Source of the DNA: Tetraselmis striata
Lineage: Eukaryota > Chlorophyta > Chlorodendrophyceae > Chlorodendrales > Chlorodendraceae
NCBI GenBank assembly: GCA_006384855.1
Contig: VCJN01000900.1
Span: 1-64,000 of the forward strand
Reading direction: 5' to 3'
DNA: 64,000 nucleotides
In this document: piece by piece, positions 5,018 through 22,400 of the stretch
Position numbering within the stretch: the first letter of the stretch is position 1
Layout: the number at the start of each line of letters is the position of its first letter
Position numbers and translations under genes: made by a program
Notes under the pieces: model-generated
The model's database searches: none
Told to the model about the DNA's origin: nothing
Seen by the model: only the letters and a program-made list of their open reading frames with translations

Positions 5018-5246
5018 AATGAGTGCGTACATCCGCCTTTACTTAGCCCGGGTGCTCCGCGTCGGCGGGCGACACGCGAGCCCGCGTGCGCATATCAATT
5101 TGATGAAATTATGGAAACGAGAAATTCATATAGTACTTTACAGATCGCGCGCGATATTCGTCGCTACTGGGTATGAAATCCACGTCCCTCGTCCGTCCCG
5201 TATCGTCCCCGTATGTCGTCGTTCGTCACCAGTAGGGCACATTTAC

Positions 5247-5268
5247 GTCACATCTGAATCTCACAGTG
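5247..5268. repeat. Terminal inverted repeat of CACTA copy 1
   Basis: 22 bp identical to both ends of copy 2 (30312-30333 and, inverted, 39018-39039). Outside it the Gypsy polyprotein frame resumes directly. Confidence 0.85.
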
Positions 5269-8200
5269 TATACGCCATTGTCGTCCACCTGCGAAAGGCA
5301 CGCTCCTATTCCAGCTCGGGACCAGTCGGTGTGCAGCACAAACGGGCGACGCCAATCAGGATGGCGCAGCACCGGCGCCGAAACCAGCATGGCCTTGATG
5401 GCGTCGAAGGATTGCTGCTCGGCTGCGCCCCATTTCCACGGCGCATCCTTCTTGGTCAACGCTGTCAAAGGTGCCTTCACAAGCGAGAAGCTCTCCAAGA
5501 AACGGCAGTAGTAGGTGGCCATCCCGAGGAAATGGCGCACATCACTGACATTCTTCGGCGCCGGAAGAGAGTTGATGGCCTCCACCTTGTCAGCCATAGG
5601 CTCCACGCCTGCGCCGCTGACAATATGACCCAGAAAGGTCACTCGTGACAGTCCGAGCCGTGTCTTGGGTGGAGAGACCTGCACTCCCCGGGCCTTGAGT
5701 CGATCAAACACAATGCGCACACGGCGCATGTGCTCCTGCTCATCGTCATGACTGAAAATCAGTACATCGTCCGCGAAGGCGACTGCGAAGTCCAAACCAG
5801 CGAGCGCTTGATCCACAACGCGCTGCCATGCTGCCACGCAGTTCTTGTGTCCGAAGGGCATGCGTTTGAAGGTTAGCAGCCGATTGCCTGCATGGAACGC
5901 GAGGCGTTGCTGCGCTGACAATCCATCGGGTCCGGACGGCTTATCCGACACTCGGCGCTGATGAAACGCCTTTGTGCAGTCAGTCGCGGTGAATCGCGAA
6001 GCTCCCTCCATGCGCGTCATGAGCTCGTCCGCTGTCGGGCACGGGTACTGATCGCGGATGGTACGCTCGTTGAGCCCACGATAGTCCACCGCATAGCGAA
6101 GATCGGTCCAGGCGCCATGCTCGTCCTTCTTCGGCGCCACGATGACTGGTGCAGCATAAGGGCTCTCGATCTCGCCCACGATGCCTGCCTTCTCCAACTT
6201 CTTGACCCAATCGTTAGCCCACTCTTGCTCTCGATGGGCAAGGTGATACTGGCGCTTGAAGACTGGGTTGTAGTCGACCAGCTGGAAGTCATAGGGCTCG
6301 GCGTCAACGGCGCGCAAGTCGTCCAGACCCCACGCGTACCAACCCGGGTCTGAGTCCATAAGTGCTGCGAAGCCCTCCTTGTCCTTCCAATCTGCCGATA
6401 TCGCCCAGTGATGAGGCTGCTTGGAGTCCTTGGGGTTGATCAGCTTGCTCGTTACCTTCACCGTTGGGGATTCCTTACCGAGATGCTTCTCGTTGGCGTA
6501 TGCGGCATAGCACTTCACGAGAGCTGCCTGGCTGCGTCGACTCCATCTGTCCGCTGCAGCTTTGTTGTCAACACCGTCCACATGTGAAGTGGCCCACGCA
6601 GGACGCTCTTGCGCTCCACCAAAGACATCTGCCATCAGTCCAGCGCCAGCACGCGAACCGACGCCAGCGGCGACGAAGCACGCGGGGCCCAAAAGGGCTA
6701 GCCACATCAGAAGTGTCAACGCCGCGCTGACAGTCTTGCGTCCGGTAGCAGCTCTACCACGACGGGGTCTTGGTTTGGCAGCCTTGTGATCGCCGGCAAC
6801 AACTCGGGCTGTGTGGTCAGCTGCCAACACACGGCGCCGAGCCTTGGCGACCTCCCGCTCCGTCGCTCGAGTCGCTTGGCGCTGCTCCTCCAGCCAACGG
6901 CGCCCCGCCTTGGTCACTCGCGCTGCTGTGCGTGGGTTGTCAGGAGGTTTCACTCTAGTACCTTGTTTGAGGGTAGCCATGTTGATGGCATGCTCCATCT
7001 CTGCCTCCACGGCGGCAGCCGTTGAGCGGCGGAGCTCGTGCTGTGCGGCGCGCAGCTCTTGCGTGTCGACCAAATGATCTTCAACTGCTGCGCCGGCAGG
7101 GGCGTCCTTCTCAATCGTTGCTGCACAAACAGCTTGCAGCATATGTTGATGTCTGCGCTCATGCGCATAGGCGACAGCACACCGGTTCATGACCGACACC
7201 GACGTCGGCGCACAAACATTTCCGATGGCAATCACCATCTCCTCCTCAGAAAAGCCTAGCTCCTGCCGGGTGTAGAAGCCAGCATAGTCTCTGTCGAGAA
7301 GGCACGCCTCACGCATGACGGCTGATGACGGACGGTATTGCGGCGGGTCAATGCCGACAACCTCCACCATTCCTGAGCCGGGCGCCCCCCCAGGTCGGAG
7401 GCGCTGCGTCCGCGTGTTGGGCGTGCTGACTGACTTGGGCGCATAAATCATGCGCCGACCGGCAACGTTGAGCCCCCCCAGCAGTGTGCCTGGGCGTGTG
7501 GGCGTCGCCACTTGAGCGCGAAGCAGCCCACCGCTGCAACGCTCCACAATCTGCGCGTAGGTCTCGCGAGGCGGCCGCTCAAACTCGTGTTGCACAGCCT
7601 GGTAGTAGTGCTGAGTGAAGGTGTTGGTCCACCACAAAGCAGAGCGAAGAGAGGCGTCTCCGCATTTGTGGGCATGATGCGCGTTGGGCTCGCCAAAGAC
7701 ACGGGCCATGAAGTCGATGAACTCCTGCACCTCAGGGCTGCGCCGGCTCGGCGCAGCCGGTATCACGTTCTCGATAACGTATCCATACTGCGCGGGAGCA
7801 GCCCAGTACTCCTTGACGCCTCGTGCCTTGGCCAACATGCAGTTGAGCTCGCTCATCGCCTCTGCCAACGGGACTATCACTCCAGTACGCTCACCACGTA
7901 GTCCATGCTGAGTGCCCATCGATGACACGTCCTGACAGGGCGGCTCAGCGCGTAGCTCGTCCAGCTCCGGCAGGTGCCTCAGGATGGCTGGTGCTGTGAT
8001 GTGCTCCACGTCATGCTCCAACTCGTCGCTAAGAGCGAAGCACTTCTCGAACGCATTGCGGGGAAGTTGCACGGGCCACCGCTGATGCATCCACTCAAGC
8101 TGTCGCAGCAGGCGCTGCCGATGAGCCACGCTCCGGAGCATACGATCCACGATCTGTATCAGCTCATAGTGGTACCCGTCGACGAGGTTGGTGAACAACA

Positions 8201-11200
8201 CTGACAGCATGCCAGCGAACAAGAAGAGCCCTTGCTTGGCGCGTCCCTCCTTGCCTCCGGTCCGGTCGAGGTCGATGATGTAGGTCAGCTCCGGCGTCGA
8301 ATGCGGCACGGCGCGCACGAGCGCCAAACGCTCCAGTGTGTGGCCGCTCAAGTGCAGCCGTCCGGCGGCTTGACGCTGCCTCCGGAGCTCCCTCCAGCCC
8401 GGTATCTCGTCCTCATGTTCCTTCAATGGCATTGCAGTGCCATCCTCCAGCTCCTCATCGTCTGATGGGCAGTCATGCTCCTGCAGATTGTCGGCGCCGG
8501 GGCCCTCCGCGCGCAGGGCGTAACACGCGCCCGCGGCCAGTGGTTCGCTATCAAGCGTTGTTTCGACCTCCGGCTCCATCTGTGTCATGATGGTGAGCTC
8601 CACATAGACATCGTCATCATCGCTGGAGTCCTCCATCAGGTCCGGCAGCTCCTCGTAGCCATCGTCATCATCGCTGGAGTCCTCCACCAGGCCCGGCAGC
8701 TCCTCATCGCTATCAGAGTCGACGTCCATGGGACTGGCGTGCAGGGTGAAGCATGACGCAATGGCGTTGGCAACATGGTCGGGCACTTCCTCTACCCAAC
8801 AGGGCACAAAGTCCTCCTCGCCATCTGAGTCGGCTACAAGCTCCGGTAGCTCAGCGTCGTCGTCTTGCTGCTCCAGCTGCACTGCAGCGTCGGCGCCCAC
8901 GTTGTCCGGTTGCAGCTCGATCCGGCTGTTGAAGGAGAATGAAGAGGTCAGGTTGGCTGCGGCATCGGGCTCCTCCCCCCCCCCAACTCCTGACGGCAGT
9001 CCGGGAGATGGGCCGTCCGATGCCAACACGGCCAGCGTTGCGTGCGGCAGCCTGCGCGGGACTTGGAGCTTGGGCATGTTGTGATGCTTCAGCGGCACAT
9101 CGACGTGGCGGCTGAGATCGTGGGGATCTGGGCGGTATGAGGCAGTATGCCCCCCCACATCGATGACCATGCCAAGGTGTGCCATGACGGATGTGCACAA
9201 GATGACATCTGGAAGATGATCGCCTTCGAGAATGGCGAACGATGGCCACTCAAACTTGCGCTCCCAATCAGTGTCCGGGTTGATCACGTAGGAGATGCGC
9301 CCCACAAGGCGCTGCATCTCCATCTTGCCGCCAATGCCTTGCATGGACATGGACTGCAGCGTGGCGTCCGCCTCGCCCGGCTTCATGCGATCCACCACGC
9401 GCCGGTGCACACCGCTGTAGTCACAGCCGGTGTCTAACAAGGCCATAAGGATGCGCACGCCGCCAATGACGACGACGGTCAACTTGCAGTCCACGTAGAA
9501 AGCACTGTGGCGGTCATACTCCGGGTAGTCAGGGTATGCGCTGCGCTGCACCTCTCGCAACTGTTGAAGTTCCGAAGATGTCGCTGACAGTTGGCGCCGA
9601 GACTCCAGAGGCTTGACGCCATGTTGCACCACGTCCACTGGATGAATGTTGGCTTGGGGCTCCGCTGATGGCAAGGACAGTGGCGGGACACTGACGCGTG
9701 GGAGAGACAGACCATAGACGCTCTGCACGGCTGCGGCAAAGACGCGCGTCAAGTCGAGGTGCGTGTAGTCAACCCAGGTGAGCCGCGCTGTCGCCTCGAA
9801 GCGTCGGACGGCTTGCTGAAGCACCGTCTCCCATGCCACGGCCATGTGGTCACGAGTGTCAAGTCCTCCACGCAGTGCAGTGTTGCGTGCCTCCAACCAC
9901 CTTGCAGCATGCTCGGGTGTCATGTCCGATACTACAGCAACGGGTAGACCAGGGAACTTGGCGTGCTGTAGCGCTGTGCGCAGGTGCTGCAGGAGCTGCT
10001 GATTGCGGATGTCCAACATGTCCGAGGTGATTGCTCCTCCTGCACGGCGGCCCTCATAGGACGCAGGAGCCTCCTGCTCGACTGCCGGCTCAAAGCCTTG
10101 GGGCCGCTGCTTGGTGAGCTGCTCGCGTTGGGCGTCCCATCCGGGTTGGCGCATGCGAAGTTCAGGGTTCCGCGCCGATCCTGGAGGCAGCACTGCCGGG
10201 CGTCCACGCGGTCTTGGCACAGTTGACTCCGGCGTCCAGTCAGCTCCCACAGGTTGCGCACGACCTGGAGCTCCAAAGAAGACTTCACGCAGCTCACGCA
10301 CGGGCAGCTCCACACACGACGCTCCATGTAGCAAAGTGCCGTGATCGTCGGTGTCAACGCAATCCAGAAAGGGGTCTGGCACCTCCACGGCCAAGCGCAT
10401 GGCACCCGTAGCACCATGGGCAGCTTGAGACTTCTCGAGGATGCGAGAGAACATGGCCTCCAGGTCTGCCATTGTTGATGATCTCGCCGCTCCGTCAACA
10501 TGGGCGTCGTGTCGCCCAGTGAGCATGTGTCCGGCTTTCCTCGCCAAGTCCATCTCGAGCTTGGACAGTCCGGTCTCCACGTCCATAGCCCATCCGCGTT
10601 GCTGTCCATAGGCAAGACGGCGCTCTCGCTCCCGCTGGTTGCGCTTCAGTCGTGCGATGAGCGTAGGGTCAGTGATTGGCTTGTCGCACTCAGTAAAGTT
10701 ATGAGCGCCGTCGCACCCAGCGTTCCAGCACGGTCCTCGTCCGCCTCCGGGTGCGCCTCCATCGCCGCGTCCGCCGCCATGACCACCACGGCCAACTCGG
10801 CCTGCGCCTCGGCCGCCTCCACGGCCGCCACGGCCACCAGCGGCGTCGTTGACATACATGGTTGAGCCGAACTTGTTGGCACACTCTCGGTAGTTGGCTC
10901 CGTGAAAGATGTCGCGTCCACGCGCCTTTGTGCATGCCTCGCACAACGGGCGGATCTGGTGGGTGTCCTTCACGACGACAAGCTGCGCCCGCACACGACG
11001 TCCGTTGACCATGGTCCATGTGATGACCGGTTCTGGAGTGCTGGTGCCGTGCTGCCGTCCTCCACCAGCTGCCGGCGCCGATGCTCCAGTCAGTTCCGCG
11101 AAGTGTTGGGCAGCCGTCAAGGCCTCCGCCATTCTAATCTCATCCTTCCTCACGATGTCCTCATAGCGCTCCACCTCCGCAGCTATCTCGTCCAAGCGGT

Positions 11201-12155
11201 CCTCATGAGACTGGCGTAGAACAGCGATGTCCTTGAGCTGGTGGAAGCCAGCGTCGAGGGATTGCTTGAGCGCCGGAATAGAGCGCCACACAGAGGTCAT
11301 GACGTCGAACGCTTTCTGGTTGACCTTGTCCCACGTGAGGTCTGGTAGATGCGCCTTGAGCTCGCGAAGAGTCATCGCCAAGCTGGCAGGGGTCTCGCGG
11401 AAGCCCTCACGGGTGTAGGCGTCGTACCTAGTGCGCATCTTCGGCGCCTCATTGAACTTGGTCTCAAAGAGCTCCACGTAGCGTCGATAGCGGAACTCGT
11501 GAAAGGCGTCCGCATCCTCGCGCGATGGCACTCTAATGCGTCCGGATGCAGGGTCGAAGCGGAGAGTTTGTTGTTGATAGCGTAGAGTGTCCTTCTGCCA
11601 TTGATCGATGATGGGCCTGGTGACAGCGTTGATCTCGACGTACTCTTGAAGAAGCTGAAGGGAGTCTGCTGGGCTGAACACCCACTCCGGTCCGGTGCTC
11701 TCGCCCTCCGATGGACCAGCTCCGTCAGCCCTCGGGGCTGATCTTGGTGGCGCCTTGTTAAGCGCGTATGGCACCAACACGTTGGCGTTGAATGAACTGA
11801 ACCACTCCGTCCATATTGAGGTACCGCCGTCGAAGCGCTCATGGCGTGGTGTTGTCTCCTTGCGTAGACCACCGGCGATTGTCCGCGCGTCTTCTCGCTC
11901 CTCGTAGATGCGCTCCTCCGCTGCACTCAGGTCACCCATGATCTGATTGGGCGTGTAGTGCTGACTTCCAGGTGGTCGTCGTCTTGATGGTGTTCCAGAT
12001 CCTACGGCGCTGGGGTCTCCACCGCGCTGCGCCATGGCGTCACGGAGCGCTTGACGCAAGACGCGCTCCGGCTCCAATAAGGGTGCTGCCACAGGTGCTC
12101 CGGTACTCCTCGTGAAGCGTCGTCTGAGTTGGCGCGGGCTCTCTCCCTCTGACAT
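5269..12155 (-). mobile_element. Ty3/Gypsy retrotransposon carrying a DNA methyltransferase, interrupted by CACTA copy 1
   Basis: One uninterrupted reading frame covers gag, protease, methyltransferase, reverse transcriptase and the start of RNase H. It then stops being Gypsy at the CACTA terminus. The rest (RNase H end, integrase, 3' LTR) should lie on the far side of the CACTA element, outside the window. The 5' LTR should lie somewhere in 12.2-13.3 kb but cannot be delimited without its partner. The absence of stops over about 2295 codons suggests a young insertion, with the CACTA insertion younger still. Confidence 0.85.
5269..12155 (-). CDS. Gag-Pol polyprotein with embedded cytosine-5 DNA methyltransferase (truncated by insertion)
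   Basis: About 2295 residues of Gypsy frame remain. Order: Gag (about 1-470); one zinc-knuckle-like motif CWNAGCDGAHNFTEC from C476 (spacing C-x4-C-x3-H-x4-C, unlike the usual C-x2-C-x4-H-x4-C); a retropepsin-type DTG at D908; an acidic linker with two near-identical EDSSDDDD units; a C5-methyltransferase-like domain (about 1300-1660); a hydrophobic stretch (about 1805-1832); reverse transcriptase with FADD (F2127-D2130) and MPFG; then the RNase H start (HTDWS...GIGACLSQ) cut at the CACTA terminus. Methyltransferase motifs: SAM-binding-like LFLFAGM (F1313), catalytic PPCQDVS (C1407), YVIENV (E1462), SALWWTN (about 1505) and IGNVCAP (I1644). The RT placement is typical of Ty3/Gypsy; the methyltransferase is not. 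Start chosen at the first ATG of the frame. Confidence 0.85.
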
Positions 12156-12521: not shown

Positions 12522-13239
12522 CCACTCTTTGGCTTTCCAAACGATCGCCTAACAGACTCTTAGGCATGTGGTCTTATGTACGTGTCCTGGCCTCTAAGTC
12601 TCTGTCTAAGACTTGCTGACTCTTGGCCTCGGTTCCTATGACTCCAGTAGAAGTACGTCTCACAGTGCTATCGGCCCTATTGGCCGGCACTACACACGCG
12701 TGCGAGTTGCTTGGTTACTCGGCGTGACAGAGGTGTGTGTGTGTGTGGTCGATCGACGCGAAATACGTCAAGCACTCCTCACCCTGTGCCGCACGACATG
12801 CCTCTCGCGAATGGACTACGAGTGCCCGCACGCGCGCATATGCGTACGCGTACGGTATCACGACACGACTCGACGACGACGACGCGCAGTACCGACTGCT
12901 CGCATATGGCAACAAGCAAGCCAGTGCTGATCAGGCACGTTCGGTACGCTAATCGGTCGGTCGGTCGGTCGACAAGTCCAGGCAGTCGGTACGACGGGTT
13001 CACAGGAGGTAAAAGCAAGACGGGCGTCACGACGCAAACAACACAGGTGTAACCGCGACTCACCACCGTTGCTTGCTGCGCGATATCACTCGCAGCTCGA
13101 CAGCAGGTTGTACTGCCCTTGATGGACAGCAATAGACGAGGCACGTGCATGTGTGGTGTGCACAGAGTCGAGGTTTTTGTGGTGTAGTAGCGTGGTTACA
13201 AGATGGGTGGGATGAGACGTTTGGAAAGCCAAAGAGTGG
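12522..13239. repeat. 22-bp perfect inverted repeat enclosing about 0.7 kb
   Basis: CCACTCTTTGGCTTTCCAAA(CG) at 12522-12543 is the exact reverse complement of 13218-13239. The enclosed sequence has no ORF of note. This could be part of the Gypsy LTR, or a small non-autonomous element. No target duplication was recognised around it. Confidence 0.5.
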
Positions 13240-15144
13240 GCGGGCAGCGCGCCGACAGGATGCTAAAGCATCCCGCGGGCGCGCGAGCCGACTAAGCCCC
13301 TAGGCCTTCCCACGCGCTATTGGTCTGCACGGGCGCCGTGGTTGGCGGCAGTTAGCCGTTGGTACGGGCCCTAGGTCTGTCGGTGGTTCTAGGTGTGAGA
13401 GCTGAGCGACAGACAGTTGGTCGTTGCGCCATGGGTGACTGCTCGCTTGGACATCAGGCATACACATACAACGCAGTACTGCAAGTACTAAAATTGATAC
13501 CCGTATGACAGGCGACGAGTATTCGCCGGTATGCCAAGTAAGCAAGTCCCCGTACGCGCGCATGCGTACGCTGAAACGTTGTACGCTGTGACATACGTCA
13601 TTTATCTCGGCAGCTACCTGTGCACCATATGATATTCTACCGGACGAATTCAGTCGCTAGTAAATTGAATTTATTAAATTATAAATAATAATTGATACCG
13701 CCGCCAGTCATAAGATAGCATAATCGCTTGTAGTAATTGAGAAGTATACTGCTAGCAGACATCCACACATCATATCAATAAATTAATCACGGACGATGGG
13801 CCGTGGGATTCTCTTTGACAGGGGGGGAATTCCGTATATACGATGCCTGCCTTTGCCTTTTATTTTGGTGATTTCCGATATCGCCTTCTGCTGCTAGCTC
13901 ATGTAATTAATATTTACGATGGGGCCCATATATCTACAGGACATCATCAAACATTCATTCTCTTGACGCTCTCCGCCCTCACCATACCAGTAAGGCCAGT
14001 CAGAATTGTTAATGTGTTTTAGGTACCCCCCCCCTCTAATCTGACCCGCCCCTCCATAAGTGTTGAAGCTGGCTGATGTAATGTGTTAAGTACTATCAAC
14101 ATTAGTGTCCAAAACTGTCCATTGGAAAGGTGCTGCAATTGTCCATATATTGTGTAGGGGGCAACTGCCACACACGTAGGTGTGCATATCAATGCACGAG
14201 GGCAGCATTGAGATAACAAAGCACACGATTATACAGCATTAGTGGTATATGGCTCCTCCTCCCCTTCTGGCGTGTGCCCACCAGGCTAACTCGAAGTGAG
14301 ACCGAGTGGGCACCTCTTCCATCGAATCCCACACGTTAGGTTGTCTTGGAGCATGCGGCTGCCACCGGACTCGCCGGACACATGCCGCCTCTTATTGCCC
14401 GAGGATGGCGAGCTGAACAGCTCATATTACTCCACGACGACCACTACAATGTGTTCAACGAGCTCAAAGGATAGGCTAGGGTACAGGTCGTTCACTGCAT
14501 ACTCTATAGCTTGCTGCGCACGGTACGGGCATCTAGCCAATCCTGCTCTAGGGGGTAGATCACGGGCTTATCGGAAAACCCGAAAACTCCCTGCCGTCCC
14601 ACTTCACCTCCCCCTTCACGGTGTGCCTGGTGGATACCGACATGGTGTCAGCTACCCAAGCCGAAGGCTGGCGACGTGAGGTAGGAGTGGTTGTGGTTGT
14701 GATAGGTATTTGCGCTCGGGGCAACAGCAGCATGCCGGCCTAGCGCGGCGGCGGCAGTGCTGGCGAGGGTTGTGTGTTGCGTACGGTACGGCAGTTAGTT
14801 GGAGCCGGTAAGGGAAGCGGAAAGTACTAGCTACCAAACTTTGCCCAGCTACAAAATCCCCCGCCCCCCCCCCCCCCCCCCCCCGCCCCCCCCCCCCCCC
14901 CCCCTCTGTTTTGAGCGACATGTGGCACCTAAAACACACTAGCTAACAATTCTTACTGGCCTAACCAAAAATATAGCTGAACATCATCTAACATACGGGT
15001 CACGATCAGGCGCGGGTTGCGTATCTTCTTTTTGGCTTTTAAATTTAATAATAGCCCCATTTTAAGCGCGTCGGTTTGTGGCCGACGGTTCGTGGCGGAA
15101 GCTTCTGATCTTATTTGCGTATATATTACTGTATTTACGTCTTA

Positions 15145-15517
15145 GGCAGGTATGTGCCTTTGTACTTACCTGCTTACTTCACTCGCCTAATGTCCGAACG
15201 GTATAACGTGAACTATACGTTCGTCCGCCACATCCGCGAAAGATGCCTTTGTGGTTAGCCGAGTACCTCGTTATGTCGGGCGCATCGGATGCGGTTGGCT
15301 CAGCAGTGTTCGATTCCCGGCGGCGGTGATGGTTATAAACCTCACTGCTATCTCCGCCCCGGGATTCGGATATCTGTGTCCATGCCGGGTGCGGGGTTAG
15401 CGGTGCGGGGGCTTGGCAGGTAAGTGCCTTGTACTTAACTGCTTACTTCACTCGCCTAATGTCCGAACGATATAACGTGAACTATCACGTTCGTTCGCCA
15501 CATCCGCGAAAGATGCC
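15145..15517. repeat. Tandem direct repeat, 103-bp block with 270-bp period
   Basis: 15145-15247 and 15415-15517 are near-identical (both contain CCTAATGTCCGAACG and CACATCCGCGAAAGATGCC), and a third copy seems to begin after 15517. The spacer carries GTTCGATTCCC, a good match to the tRNA B box, after GGTTGGCTCAGC. The two are too close together for a tRNA, but a tRNA-derived repeat is possible. Confidence 0.6.
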
Positions 15518-16478: not shown

Positions 16479-19400
16479 TCAGTCGAGCCGCCGGCGAGTG
16501 GCGGGGTGGTACTGGTCGTACTGCACCTCTCGCGGCGGCGGGCGCTTGGAGATGGCGGAGATGTGCGAGACCAGCTCGTCCTGCTTCATGCGCACCTCCA
16601 CATGCGCGAACTTGCAGGCGGCCCCGTTGCGGCAGCCCTTGGGCGTGTTGAAGAAGAGGCATGCCTTGCCGCTGGGGGGCGGGCCGACCGGGCCGGAGGG
16701 CGGCGGCGGCCCGCCCGGCCCCCGCGGCCCGGAGGGGCGCTCCGCCTCCACCTGCCTCCAGCCAATGCTGGCCCCAAGCCGCCCGACCTCGCGCTCCCGC
16801 TCCTCCCGCCAGGCTGCGAGGTCGCGGTCCCCGCCGCCGCGCCGGTCGACGCCAGGACCAGGCCGGCGGTCCCAGCCACCGGGCCCAGGGCCGGGGGCAG
16901 GGCGGCCGCGGCCCTCGCGCTCGCGCTCCTCCCGCCAGGCCGCCAGGTCCCCGCTGCCTCGGCGCTCGCCGCCCGGGCGGTCCCACCCGCTCGCGCGCGG
17001 CGCGTCCCAGCCGCTGTCGCGGCGCTCGTGCCGCCGGCCTCCCCCGCGGGGGGGCGGGGAGCCACCGTGCGCCCGGTCGCCCAGCGCGCGCCAGGAGGTA
17101 TCCCCCCCCGGAGGCGGCTGCTGCGCCATTGCGGGCGGAGGCCCCAGGGTTGTGCCCCAGCCGTCGTTGGCAAACCCCGGAGGCGGCGCCTGGCCCTGGT
17201 CCGGAGGCGGAGCGTGCGGAGGCGCGTGGGGCCGCTCCCAGCCTGGCTGAGCCGGAGGGGCCTGGCTGGCCGCAGGCGTGGGCGCCGGCGCGCCGCTGGT
17301 CATGGCCTGCAGCTGCGACAGGAGTGCGGGGTCCATCTGGGACACGAGCTCCAGCACCGAGGACGTGCCGGTGCCGGCAGGGGCGCCGGCCGGCAGCGCC
17401 TGCAAGGCCTGCGGGGCGGCCGCCTGCGCGGGCGCCGCGGGCTCCTCGACCGCCCAGGGGATGCTCGGCACGGGCTGCTGCAGCGCCTCGCGCTCCTGCT
17501 TGGACAGCAGCATCGGCTCCTTGGGGCTGTGCTCCTGGGACAGGCCGCCCGAGTAGAGCGACGGCACCAGGCCCGCCTCGCGCCGCAGCTGCTGCGGCGC
17601 CTCCAGGCTGTCCTCCCCGCGCCCCGTCGCGGTGTGCTCCGGCCCCAGCAGCAGCGCGGGCGGCGGCTCCCACGCCACGCCTGGCGCTAGCAGCTGCGCC
17701 TCCTCCTGCCCTTCCTCCGGGTGAGAGCGCACGTGCTCGTTGGCCTCCGCCTCCGCCATGTGCTCCCGCCTCGACGCCGACTCAAAGCCTGTAGCAGCGA
17801 GGAGAAAGGCCCCGGGGAGGGGGGGGGGCGTCAGACAGCGCATCCTCCCAATGCTAGCAGTTCTCCACAGGACGGGACACGCCTTCAGAGCCGGGGTAAA
17901 CTCGGGCCACATGACACACCATGTTCGGGGCTGGTAATAAGATGTCGTATGTTAATATTCATGTGGTGGGTGGGAAAATAAGTCAACAGCAGGATGATGG
18001 GGTGGAGTCTTTCAATAATGCCGTAGAAGTGGGGTGGTGGAATGCAGCTCGCGCCCTCCTCCCGCAGGTTTCCTTCTCGCAGGCGTGGGCATAGGTGAAG
18101 AACGGAGAAGCTGAAAGATAGTAATCTTGTTGGTGAGAGGGGGGGGGGGGGGGGGGGGGGCGGGGGGGGCACCTGCGCGTGGCGAGTCCGGGTCAAGCAC
18201 CTCCTCGTCATCGCCTCCCATGTCGTCCTTCGCCGCCGCCTGCGGCGGCATCTCCTTCCGGAATAGGCGCACCTCAAACTCGCGGACAGCCCGGAACGAG
18301 ACCGTCTTGGCCTTGGCCTTCTTGGGGGCGGCGGGGTCCGGCTCAGAGTCCGGGATTTTCGCAGCGGCCTCGGCAGCGCGCTGCGCGGCTGTTCGCTGCG
18401 TCGGGTTGAGCGTGACCTTGATGGTGACCGGCAGCCGGGCCATCTGCTTGGGCGGAGCTGCCAGGTTGGTGACCTTTGGCCCGGCGACATCGACCTTGGT
18501 CTCTGTGGGCGCGGTCGGCCCTGCAACTTGACTCTCCTCAGGTGCGACCTCCCCTGCCGGGTCCTTCTCATCGGGGCTATCTGCGCTGCCTTCTGGCTGT
18601 GCACTGCTGAAGGGGGTGCTGGCGTCCTCGCCGCCCGCCTTGGGGCTCTCGCCGGCCTTGGGACTCAGCAGGCCGTCGCCCTTGTCCCCGTCACCCGGGA
18701 CCTCCAGCTTCTGCACCCTGCGCCGCACCACGGCAGGGACGGCAGCCTTGGGCCGCGGCGCAGCCTTGCGCGACGCAAACAGCGAGTCGTCGTCCGCAGC
18801 CTTCAGGGCGAGCCGGGGCGCGCCGCCCCCCCTGCCCTGCCCTGCCAGCTTGTCGGACTTCTCCTTCTTGGCAGCAGAGGCTGCCGCCCCCTCCCCATCC
18901 CTCCACAGGATGCGGTGATCATATCAACAGAATCAGCAGCGATAGCAGAGCGTCCTGCCAGGCAGGATCGGTCACAAATAACACTGCAACCCACTCCCGA
19001 AGAAATGAAAAATCCCGTACCCAGGACAGCCCGCGCACCTTTCACGTTTCTGCCCAGCCTTCTGACTATCTGCGGCAGGCTTGATGAACATGCCCTTCCA
19101 CTTGTTGACCAGCGCCTTGGCAGCGCTCTTGACGCCGTCTGGAAACGTCGTCTTGATCAGGCTCTTGACAGTCTTGCCGAGCTGCGACTTGGACAGCGAC
19201 TCGATGGTGACGGGCAGCTTGTCCAAGGCGGTGATGATGTTCTTGGCAAAGGATGTCAGGTCGTTCCGCTCGTTCACGGGCAGGGCGGTGCCCGTGTCCC
19301 GCGCCTGCAGCAACCAGGTGTTGAGGGTGACCAGGCCGTCATTGTCCACAAACTGCTTGTGGCAGGCCGTGTTGGTGGTCAGGTTCATGATGGCTAGCAG

Positions 19401-22400
19401 CAGGTAGCGCTTGTGGAGCTCATCCTCCTTGGCCAGCAGCTGCTGAAAAGCTGCAAACTTGCTGATGTCCTCCACGCCGCCCATCGGGCTGAGCAGCGGC
19501 TGGAGCAGCTTGCCCAGGTCAGCCTGCTCGCGGGCCTGCGACTGCAGGGCGACTTTCTGGTACCGCCTCTTCACGTTTGCAGAGGGGCGTGCCTTTGGCG
19601 TCTCCTCCGCAGCTTCCGGCTGTGCAGCAGCCGGGCTGGCTCCCGCTGCTGCGCTCATGGATGGACCCACGACAGCAGCCTCTGCGCTAGTTGCAGAAGG
19701 AGCCAGGGGGGCGGCGGCCGCTGGCTGTGGGACGGACTCTGGAGACGTGGAAGGGGCCGCTGGTGCGTTGGCAGCCGCGGGGACAGGCAATTGTGGCGCG
19801 TCAGGAAAGGCGATGGCGGCTTCCTTTGCAGCTGCAGCCTCGGCCTCCTCCTTTGCCTTCTCCGTTAGGCAGCGCTTCTTCAGGTGCTTGTTCACACATG
19901 TGTGGCAGTGTCCGCATTTATTGGCCTTCTTTCGCGGCCGCTTCTTGCCGCTTGGGCTGAGTGGCTCGGGGGAGGCCCCTGGCTGACGGGTGCCAGGAGA
20001 CAACGGACTGGCTGCATCCGTGGCGGCACCGCTCGCATCCGCAGTTGCCGCAGACGAGTGCATTGCTGCACCAGCAGCGGTCCCTGTGGCGCCCGTGCCA
20101 TCAGCTGCTGAATCTGCGGGGTCAGCTGGAGTGCCTACAGCGTCAGCGGGGGTGGTACTGCCACCTGCTGGGGCGCCCTCAACATCAGCCACTACTGGAG
20201 GGCTGTCAGATGCATCATCAGCTGCACCGCTGACATCATCTGGGCCGCCTGCAGTGTCCGCTGGGGTGGGAGTGGCGTCGGTTGGGGCGTCTTGTGTGTC
20301 AGTTGGAGCTGGAATGCTGTCCGATGGAGCAGCTGCGGCGGCGGTTGAAGCGCACATGGTGTCAGCTGGGATGGCAGCGCTGCCGGCTGGCGCGCTCGCG
20401 CTATCAGCTCCTGTAGGACTGCCGTCACTCGGGACAGCGGTGGCATTGTTTGATGCGCCTGCAGTGCTAACAGGGACGGCCGCTGGGTCGGCTGGGGTAT
20501 CAGTGACGGAAGTTGATGCAGTGGGGGGTTCAGCCGTCGCTGCGGGGCTGTCAGCGGCCGCGGCGGCATCTGTTGCTGCGACAGCAGTGTCGCCTGCGTT
20601 GACAGCGCCGTCAGGTAGTTCGCTCAGGGAGGCAGATGCCGTTGGATTGCTGTCACTCGGGGAAGCGGCAACATCGCTTGGTGCGCCCGCGGTGTCATCA
20701 GGCGCTTCCGCTGTGTCAGCTGGTTTTTGAGTGGCGGAAGCTGCCGCGCCTGCGGTTTCAACCGGTGCTGGACCACTGTCGCTGGCGGTGGCAGCGGTGG
20801 CATTGGTTGGGGCACCCGTGGTTTCCGCTGGGTTGGCAGTGCTAAAGCCTGGGGCACCTGGGGTGTCGGCTGGTGCTGCGTTTTTGCCACCAGTCGGGCC
20901 AATAGTGGCAGTAGTGACATCTGTAGATGCGACCGCAGTGTCGCCTGCGTTGACAGTGCCGTCAGGTAGTTCGCTCAGAGAGGCAGATGCTGTAGGGCTG
21001 CCGCCACTCGGGGCAGCGGTGGCATCTGTTGGGGCACCCGTGGTTTCCGCTGGGGTAGCAGTGCTGAAGTCTGGGGCACCTGGGGTGTCGGCTGGTGCTG
21101 CATTGCCACCAGTTGGGCCAATAGTGGCAGTGGTGACATCTGTTGATGCGACCGCAGTGTCGCCTGCGTTGACAGTGCTGTCAGGGAGTTCGCTCAGGGA
21201 GGCAGATGCTGTTGGATTGCTGTCACTCGGGGCAGCGGCGGCATCACTTGATGCGCCCGCGGTGTCACCAGGGGCTTCCGCTGTGTCGGCTGGTTTTTGA
21301 GTGACGGAAGCTGCCACGCCCGCGGTTTCAGCTAGTGCTGGACCGCTGTCGGTTGCGGCAACAGTGGCGGCGGTGGCATCTGTTGGGGCACCCGTGGTTT
21401 CCGCTGGGGTGGCAGTGCTGAGCTCTGGGGCACCTGGTGTGTCAGCTGGTGCTTCATTGCTGTCAGTTGGGACAACAGTGGCAGTGGTGACATTCGTTGA
21501 TGCGCCTACGGTGTTAGCTGCCGTGGCAGTGCAGCCGCCTAATGCGCCCGGGATGCCAGCTGATGCTGGAATGTCGTCTGCCGCAGCGGCTGCAGCATCC
21601 GCTGCTCCGCATGACCCATTAGCTTGACCGCCTGCTGTGACCCCTGGCGCAGCAGTGTCGCTGGCTGGGGGACCAACAGCATCGACAGGGACGGCGATGG
21701 TGGCAGCTACGGCGGCTGCTAAGCCTACGGCATCTTCCAGTCCTTCGCTGATGTTGCATTCGCTGCTGCCTGGCATCTCAGCCACTGCCGTCGGTATTTC
21801 TGGCCCTGGCTCGGAGTTGCCTGTGTTGTTGAATGAGGCAGTCACGCTCGGGGCTTCGATGTCGTAAATGGGTACCTCCTGTTCCGGATGCGGGCACTCT
21901 ACCTCGGGCTGTGCCTCCTGCCCATCCCTGCCTGCATTCTCTTGCGCTGCGCCACTACCAGGTGCACATGTACCAGGCTTATTGTCCTCGATGGCCTCGC
22001 CACACAGCTGTTGCCCAGGCGCGAAGTGCCCACCCTGTTCAGGAGATGGCTCCCTAGCGTCTACCATGGCACACGTTTTGCCTGCAGCAAGGCAGACACA
22101 GCAAGGAATCAGGCCGAAACTTCCACACACGCTGTGATTATCAAGATGAGGGTGATGCGATGGGCCCTCTACGTCAATTGGCTCTCATGGACTTCTGCTG
22201 TGGTGGGGGGTGACTAGCGCTCATGAGCTATGCTGCGATAAACTAGGTGGGTCGAGGGCAGGGACGCTTACTCGCAGGGGCAGTCTCGGATGGAGCCGCG
22301 TCAGGGAGGGCTGCGTCGTCATCAACGTATGCTATTTCCTCGTCGCAGAGCATGGCATCAACCACGGGGTCCGTCAGGGTCTCGGCTTGGACAGCGACGG

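What the first reader, a model, noticed from the sequence alone, without database searches (positions are those of the whole stretch)
7176..8260. Cytosine-5 DNA methyltransferase domain inside a Gypsy polyprotein
Between protease and reverse transcriptase the frame contains, in the right order and spacing, the C5-methyltransferase landmarks LFLFAGM, PPCQDVS (catalytic Cys C1407), YVIENV, SALWWTN and IGNVCAP. Retroelements with captured cytosine methyltransferases have been described in dinoflagellates and the charophyte Klebsormidium. I know of none as a standard part of chlorophyte Gypsy elements. An element that methylates DNA could silence or mark its own copies, or maintain host methylation. 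The frame is uninterrupted, so the domain may be active.
Basis: partly seen in the sequence, partly recalled or inferred. Interest (0 to 1): 0.92.

Follow-up and report, generated by a model that had tools for sequence, protein, structure and literature searches.

The report
DNA-methylating domain inside an algal retrotransposon
A family of jumping genes, most likely of the green alga Tetraselmis, carries its own DNA-marking (cytosine methyltransferase) enzyme domain, apparently kept by selection, inside an element whose repeat layout suggests that it passes through a DNA circle.

Summary

The window copy is not intact: it stops in RNase H (~5272). The genome gave 123 match rows; 27 cover the domain at 88-100% identity without a stop, eight in frames of at least 2934 aa. 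pN/pS is 0.12 (9 copies) or 0.24 (24 copies); methyltransferase and RT trees agree.

New here: host lineage, a C-terminal PHD finger, and clues to integration. Four of five copies read whole have A1-ORF-B1-A2-B2 repeats, as reported for Klebsormidium KnitGypsy-Dnmt3, with 4-bp target duplications, a self-complementary primer site, a palindromic inner junction and a variable outer one, suggesting an end-joined circle. Activity is unproven; a usual catalytic Arg appears to be Ala. Real; a new variant of a known kind.

The parts
12538..13593 (-). A1, the long terminal repeat (1060 bp in full copies), 5' end of the element at 13593
   Evidence: 98.96% identical over 1060 bp to the A repeat of copy C1872; start TGTCACAG at 13593
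13218..13239 (-). 22-nt CCACTCTTTGGCTTTCCAAACG inside A1, proposed start of the mRNA / self-primer
   Evidence: exact reverse complement of the 22 nt at the end of A1; pair present in the window copy and in the 4 full copies counted
12522..12543 (-). proposed self-complementary primer-binding site at the A1/internal border
   Evidence: initiator-tRNA primer site not above chance (4 matches, 4.6 expected)
5226..12155 (-). gag-pol open frame, 2309 aa from ATG; the last ~14 codons are not element sequence
10626..10763 (-). CCHC zinc knuckle region of gag (approximate)
   Evidence: alignment with 4 relatives
10197..10214 (-). AT-hook-like motif, [R/P]GRP in 5 of 5 aligned polyproteins (approximate)
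   Evidence: the name AT-hook is recalled
9126..9545 (-). retropepsin-like protease region with LLDTGCD (approximate)
   Evidence: weak PF13650 (E 0.2, below cut-off); D[TS]GC in 5 of 5 aligned polyproteins
7149..8282 (-). C5-cytosine DNA methyltransferase domain, residues 1292-1669
7935..7937 (-). catalytic Cys1407 codon (motif IV PPCQ)
7764..7772 (-). motif VI Glu-Asn-Val
6660..6722 (-). strongly hydrophobic, membrane-helix-like segment between methyltransferase and RT
   Evidence: Kyte-Doolittle peak 2.07; also in P0003, P0012, P0013, P0014, 5 of 5 scanned
5619..6134 (-). reverse transcriptase (PF00078), nearest solved structures of the Ty3 kind
5272..5432 (-). RNase H, cut off at about 5272 where similarity to full copies ends

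Best explanation
The domain is a genuine, divergent C5-cytosine DNA methyltransferase that belongs to the Pol polyprotein of a Ty3/Gypsy-type element family, most likely of the green alga Tetraselmis. Full copies read gag-protease-methyltransferase-hydrophobic segment-RT-RNase H-integrase-PHD in one frame. Proposed working (inferred): the mRNA primes itself through a 22-nt fold-back; the linear cDNA ends at the primer site and the polypurine tract; its ends are joined into a circle (variable A2-B2 junction); the integrase opens the circle at the palindrome GACA-AT-TGTC inside the repeat and inserts with a 4-bp duplication. The methyltransferase, made in the same polyprotein, most likely methylates this cDNA or circle before or just after insertion, so that the element enters the genome already marked; the PHD finger would read chromatin at the target. 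Shown: domain identity, copies, constraint, repeats, ends. Inferred: activity, substrate, order of steps.
Confidence: 0.62

Rival explanations
1. The domain is a C5-methyltransferase relative that has lost catalysis and is kept as a DNA- or SAM-binding or structural part of the polyprotein.
For: Ala in 7 of 7 where HhaI/DNMT3 have the second catalytic Arg of motif VIII (the role of that Arg is recalled); motif I glycines reduced to xGM[LG] (40, 107); the C-terminal half is more conserved than the catalytic half in 10 of 10 pairs.
Against: Motif IV Cys and ENV are kept in every row that covers them, the acidic residues of motifs II and III in nearly all; low pN/pS. A dead domain need not keep the Cys.
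Confidence: 0.25
2. It methylates RNA (own transcript or tRNA primer), as DNMT2 does, not DNA.
Confidence: 0.1
3. The split repeats come from ordinary LTR-LTR recombination or nested insertion, not from an end-joined circle (bears on the integration step only).
For: Copy C2330 has two A repeats in tandem and none downstream in the stretch fetched.
Against: The same A1-ORF-B1-A2-B2 order with 4-bp duplications recurs in independent insertions and in a family whose methyltransferase is 47% identical.
Confidence: 0.1
4. Chance or misread motifs in an unrelated linker domain.
For: Sub-threshold Pfam match.
Confidence: 0.01

Closest known systems
KnitGypsy-Dnmt3 of Klebsormidium nitens (PMC5890265; abstract and sections 6, 9, 10, 11 with the Fig. 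4 legend read)
   Same: Gypsy domain set, C5-methyltransferase inside the Pol frame, purifying selection on that domain, and repeats of DIRS form with Gypsy domains.
   Different: Host is a streptophyte; its domain is assigned to Dnmt3 by the authors; no PHD finger, self-priming, palindrome, duplications or junction variation mentioned in the sections read. Sequences could not be compared here. A later paper (PMC12344493, passage) speaks of LTR Copia and DIRS for the same 2018 report.
SymbioDIRS-Dnmt3 and SymbioLINE-Dnmt of dinoflagellates (PMC5890265, sections 6 and 10)
   Same: Retroelements with a captured C5-methyltransferase; SymbioDIRS also has A-B-A-B repeats; its domain makes 5mCG in yeast.
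   Different: Tyrosine recombinase or LINE endonuclease, not a DDE integrase; different RT class.
DNMT3A/3B and DRM2 catalytic domains
   Same: Best structural neighbours of the P0012 model.
   Different: Profile score to that single piece is 20.4, against 39.9 for HhaI alone; six phage enzymes alone gave 47.6, 34.4, 30.6, 36.1, 21.1 and 22.3.
Tf1-type self-priming (recalled)
   Same: 5' part of the RNA complementary to the primer site next to the repeat.
   Different: 22 nt here, 16 nt in C2722; transcript start not mapped.
ParB-plus-DNA-methyltransferase proteins of algal DNA transposons (PMC12477816, one passage)
   Same: Mobile elements of algae with a DNA methyltransferase.
   Different: DNA transposons; predicted N4-cytosine or N6-adenine methylation.

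Membership tests
C5-cytosine methyltransferase superfamily (PF00145) | Curated Pfam score of the window domain (a detection threshold, not a biological feature) | tested here: not met
   16.4-16.5 bits vs 22; best aligned member E 2.2e-5 (bits not printed)
C5-cytosine methyltransferase superfamily (PF00145) | Profile-profile homology above controls | tested here: met
   P 8.3e-8, 61.5 vs at most 24.7 in 100 shuffles
C5-cytosine methyltransferase superfamily (PF00145) | Motif IV Cys and motif VI ENV | tested here: met
   23 of 23 and 24 of 24 rows that cover them
C5-cytosine methyltransferase superfamily (PF00145) | Motif VIII with two Arg | tested here: inconclusive
   R213 invariant, second position Ala in 7 of 7; depends on the alignment
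C5-cytosine methyltransferase superfamily (PF00145) | Fold | tested here: met
C5-cytosine methyltransferase superfamily (PF00145) | Enzymatic activity | not testable with these tools
   none
Dnmt3 class | Closest to Dnmt3 rather than to other classes | tested here: inconclusive
   fold favours DNMT3 (103), profile favours HhaI-type (76, 78); no tree with host DNMTs was built
Ty3/Gypsy | Order PR-RT-RNase H-integrase in one Pol, Ty3-like RT | tested here: met
   domain order in P0012; Ty3 Gag-Pol 7q5b E 7.5e-42, best 4ol8 E 1.1e-42
Ty3/Gypsy | Usual layout of two plain LTRs at the ends | tested here: not met
   A1-ORF-B1-A2-B2 in 4 of 5 copies read whole, the fifth with two A repeats in tandem
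DIRS order | Tyrosine recombinase instead of a DDE integrase (definition partly recalled) | tested here: not met
   PF00665 integrase core 51.4 bits in P0005 and 42.4 in P0012, cut-off 32.6; 4-bp duplications in 8 of 9 copies
KnitGypsy-Dnmt3 kind | Gypsy Pol with methyltransferase and DIRS-form repeats | tested here: met
   definition from PMC5890265
KnitGypsy-Dnmt3 kind | Common descent by sequence | not tested
   no protein named as Klebsormidium was returned, and no such sequence was at hand

The most novel reading that the evidence does not exclude
Elements of this clade replicate like LTR retrotransposons but integrate from an end-joined two-LTR circle, the integrase cutting a palindrome inside the repeat; the methyltransferase goes with the circular intermediate, not with the element class, and marks that circle. 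That would explain why both DIRS elements and split-repeat Gypsy elements carry DNA methyltransferases, and would make the Klebsormidium and Tetraselmis elements one old lineage and not two captures.
Probability: 0.4. Interest if true: 0.87.

Novelty: new variant of a known kind. Interest (0 to 1): 0.74.

Why it matters
It extends methyltransferase-bearing retrotransposons to what is most likely a chlorophyte, in a domain so divergent that a survey by Pfam threshold could miss it, and gives a many-copy, recent, open set in which self-methylation and the route of integration can be tested. If the circle reading is right, a DDE integrase using an internal palindrome of an end-joined circle is a route that differs from that of ordinary LTR elements, and it links DNA methyltransferase capture to circular intermediates.

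Tried and rejected
Rejected: chance motifs. Rejected: intact window copy. Viral origin: no relative in IMG/VR with the single domain or with alignments A1 and A3; none in genome contigs; the BFVD fold search gave phage and giant-virus C5-methyltransferases only at E 0.03 or worse, so a viral source is neither shown nor excluded. No Rfam search was run. Initiator-tRNA primer site: 4 matches in the window, 4.6 expected. CpG depletion: none. A first structure model with the window sequence leading was poor; a family missing from the structure tables is not excluded. The pN/pS counts used 27 of the 30 loci fetched (L024, L027, L037 dropped for length), which are 30 of 123 match rows; 9 of 27 were co-linear and open over all four parts; 24 of 27 open over the domain give 0.24. 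Choosing open copies lowers the ratio somewhat. A first run of that script failed because minus-strand loci were not turned. For the 3' ends, 10 further copies were asked for and 9 obtained (the C827 contig ends too early). Papers: no report of such an element in chlorophytes was seen in the listings of searches (46 listed 20 of 371 papers, 138 listed 12 of 104); the library lacks most subscription journals, so absence is weak. Besides PMC5890265, only passages of PMC12344493, PMC9998398, PMC12477816, PMC9033089, PMC11244446 and PMC6338049 were seen.
Full report
WHAT IS THERE. The open frame 12155-5226 on the minus strand encodes 2309 aa. Pfam sees reverse transcriptase and RNase H; PF00145 appears at 13.8 bits in the polyprotein and 16.4-16.5 bits in the domain alone, below the cut-off of 22. 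The named landmarks are all there and Cys1407 is numbered correctly. The host is most likely Tetraselmis striata: the nearest proteins are EukProt entries labelled jgi/Tetstr1, 81-99% identical over the stretch aligned (that the label means T. striata is my reading; taxonomy).

CLASS. Two lines disagree. Structure prefers DNMT3, as does a motif VIII of the shape R.A.WWTN against HRARYFWGN. Sequence prefers HhaI-type: score 39.9 with HhaI alone and 47.6 to 21.1 with six phage enzymes alone, against 20.4 with a DNMT3A piece; two of the six phage enzymes (21.1, 22.3) are no better than DNMT3A. Motif IV is PPCQ, not PCN. I leave the class open.

DOUBTS ON CATALYSIS. In an ungapped match of WWTN to FWGN the second Arg is Ala in 7 of 7. 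Motif I varies (FAGML, YTGMG, CAGML, APGML, ASGML, GPGMG). One relative, P0033, has SC for PC. The motif IV Cys is kept in 23 of 23 and ENV in 24 of 24 rows that cover them; P0016 has changes in three other motif residues.

COPIES AND CONSTRAINT. The host assembly (224 Mb, 2903 contigs) gave 123 match rows; 27 cover residues 1-378 at 88-100% identity without a stop, eight of them in open frames of 2934-2970 aa, and a number of rows at 37-52% identity show other families. Counts are lower bounds by the tool's statement (109 of 332 candidates scored). Five copies were read whole: stop-to-stop frames of 2953 aa in C1905, C1657, C1872 and C2330 and 2936 aa in C427, all ending in the same PHD-like segment. 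PHD scores are 28.7 in P0013 and 26.9 in P0012, above the cut-off of 24, but 19.4 in the Tetstr1 protein P0005. pN/pS over 9 open co-linear copies: methyltransferase 0.12, RT part 0.05, upstream linker 0.31, linker with hydrophobic segment 0.21; over 24 open copies of the domain 0.24. Between families the domain is 43-62% identical, RT 62-80%, the linker after it 14-43%. Trees of methyltransferase and RT-RNase H of six polyproteins have the same topology, and identities correlate at 0.957 over 15 pairs. So the domain has most likely been inherited with RT since before these families split.

ELEMENT STRUCTURE. In 4 of the 5 copies read whole the order is A1 (1060 bp) - ORF - purine tract GTGGGGGGGA - B1 (about 62 bp) - A2 - B2, 11.55-11.6 kb; A1 and A2 are 99.6-100% identical, hence recent insertions. 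The fifth, C2330, has two A repeats in tandem and none downstream in the stretch fetched. The ends are TG at A1 and CA at B2, with 4-bp duplications CTAT, CTTG, ACTC, CAAC, and TGGG, AAGT, CACA, ATTC in four of five further copies; C2425 shows none. A family with 47% identical methyltransferase (C2722) has the same order, TG/CA ends, a TTCT duplication and a 16-nt self-complement in place of the 22-nt one. C2666 has repeats of 838 bp (97.9%) and about 51 bp (86%) in matching positions; its ends were not examined. The window copy keeps A1 (13593-12538) and the frame to about 5272.

HOW IT MAY WORK. The 22 nt at position 355 of A are the exact reverse complement of the 22 nt that start at the end of A1, where that complement occurs once per element (4 of 4): a fold-back primer of the Tf1 kind (recalled). 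Reverse transcription from there to the purine tract would give a linear cDNA running from B at one end to A at the other. The inner B1-A2 junction is GACA-AT-TGTC, a palindrome, in 4 of 4 and in C2722. The A2-B2 junction is different: between GGCGAT and GTATGC stand A (4 copies), GA (2), TGA, C, CA, a 12-nt filler, and in C198 about 16 nt of B are missing; 11 of 13 copies with A2 have B after it, C1064 and C1912 do not. An unchanging inner junction and a variable outer one are what is expected if cDNA ends are joined without a template into a circle or dimer and the integrase then cuts at the palindrome. This is inference from end sequences; no circle was seen, and inheritance of the outer junction from mother copies is not excluded.

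KNOWN PRECEDENT. De Mendoza et al. 2018 (PMC5890265; abstract and sections 6, 9, 10, 11 read) report KnitGypsy-Dnmt3, a Gypsy Pol with a Dnmt3-type domain whose repeats have the structure of DIRS elements. That is the same unusual pair of features. They see an independent capture in the K. nitens lineage. The elements described here raise the option of one older lineage, which I could not test for lack of Klebsormidium sequences. In yeast KnitGypsy-Dnmt3 gave no methylation, called inconclusive, while SymbioDIRS-Dnmt3 methylated CG. PMC12344493 (passages) describes ChloroDNMTs and orphan DNMTs; PMC9998398 (passages) finds DNMT5a in T. astigmata and DNMT6 in three Tetraselmis, so a host maintenance enzyme may exist (inference).

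VERDICT. Real, of a kind known since 2018, new in host lineage, domain divergence, PHD partner and in the structural clues to integration. Activity is open.

Noticed in passing
window 6660-6722 (-); P0003, P0012, P0013, P0014: A membrane-helix-like hydrophobic segment lies between methyltransferase and RT in 5 of 5 polyproteins scanned; unusual for Pol and unexplained.
   Followed up: partly
L038-L047, P0005, P0012, P0013: C-terminal PHD finger after the integrase, where chromoviruses have a chromodomain (recalled); absent from the truncated window copy.
   Followed up: partly
window 10197-10214 (-): Conserved GRP AT-hook-like motif followed by a conserved LP.G....RM..PGW block between gag and protease.
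   Followed up: no
window 8596-8697 (-): Tandem 51-nt repeat encoding an acidic ELPDLMEDSSDDDD-like linker; P0005 shows one unit more.
   Followed up: no
window 15160-15247 and 15429-15517: Two direct repeats of about 88 nt, 269-270 bp apart, 96-97% identical, about 1.6 kb beyond the element's 5' end.
   Followed up: no
G000 C2330 (L040): Two A repeats in tandem upstream of a 2953-aa frame and none found downstream.
   Followed up: no
window 18972-22130 (-): Large frame with a Med26/TFIIS helical-bundle domain (E 1.1e-11), a probable host gene.
   Followed up: no
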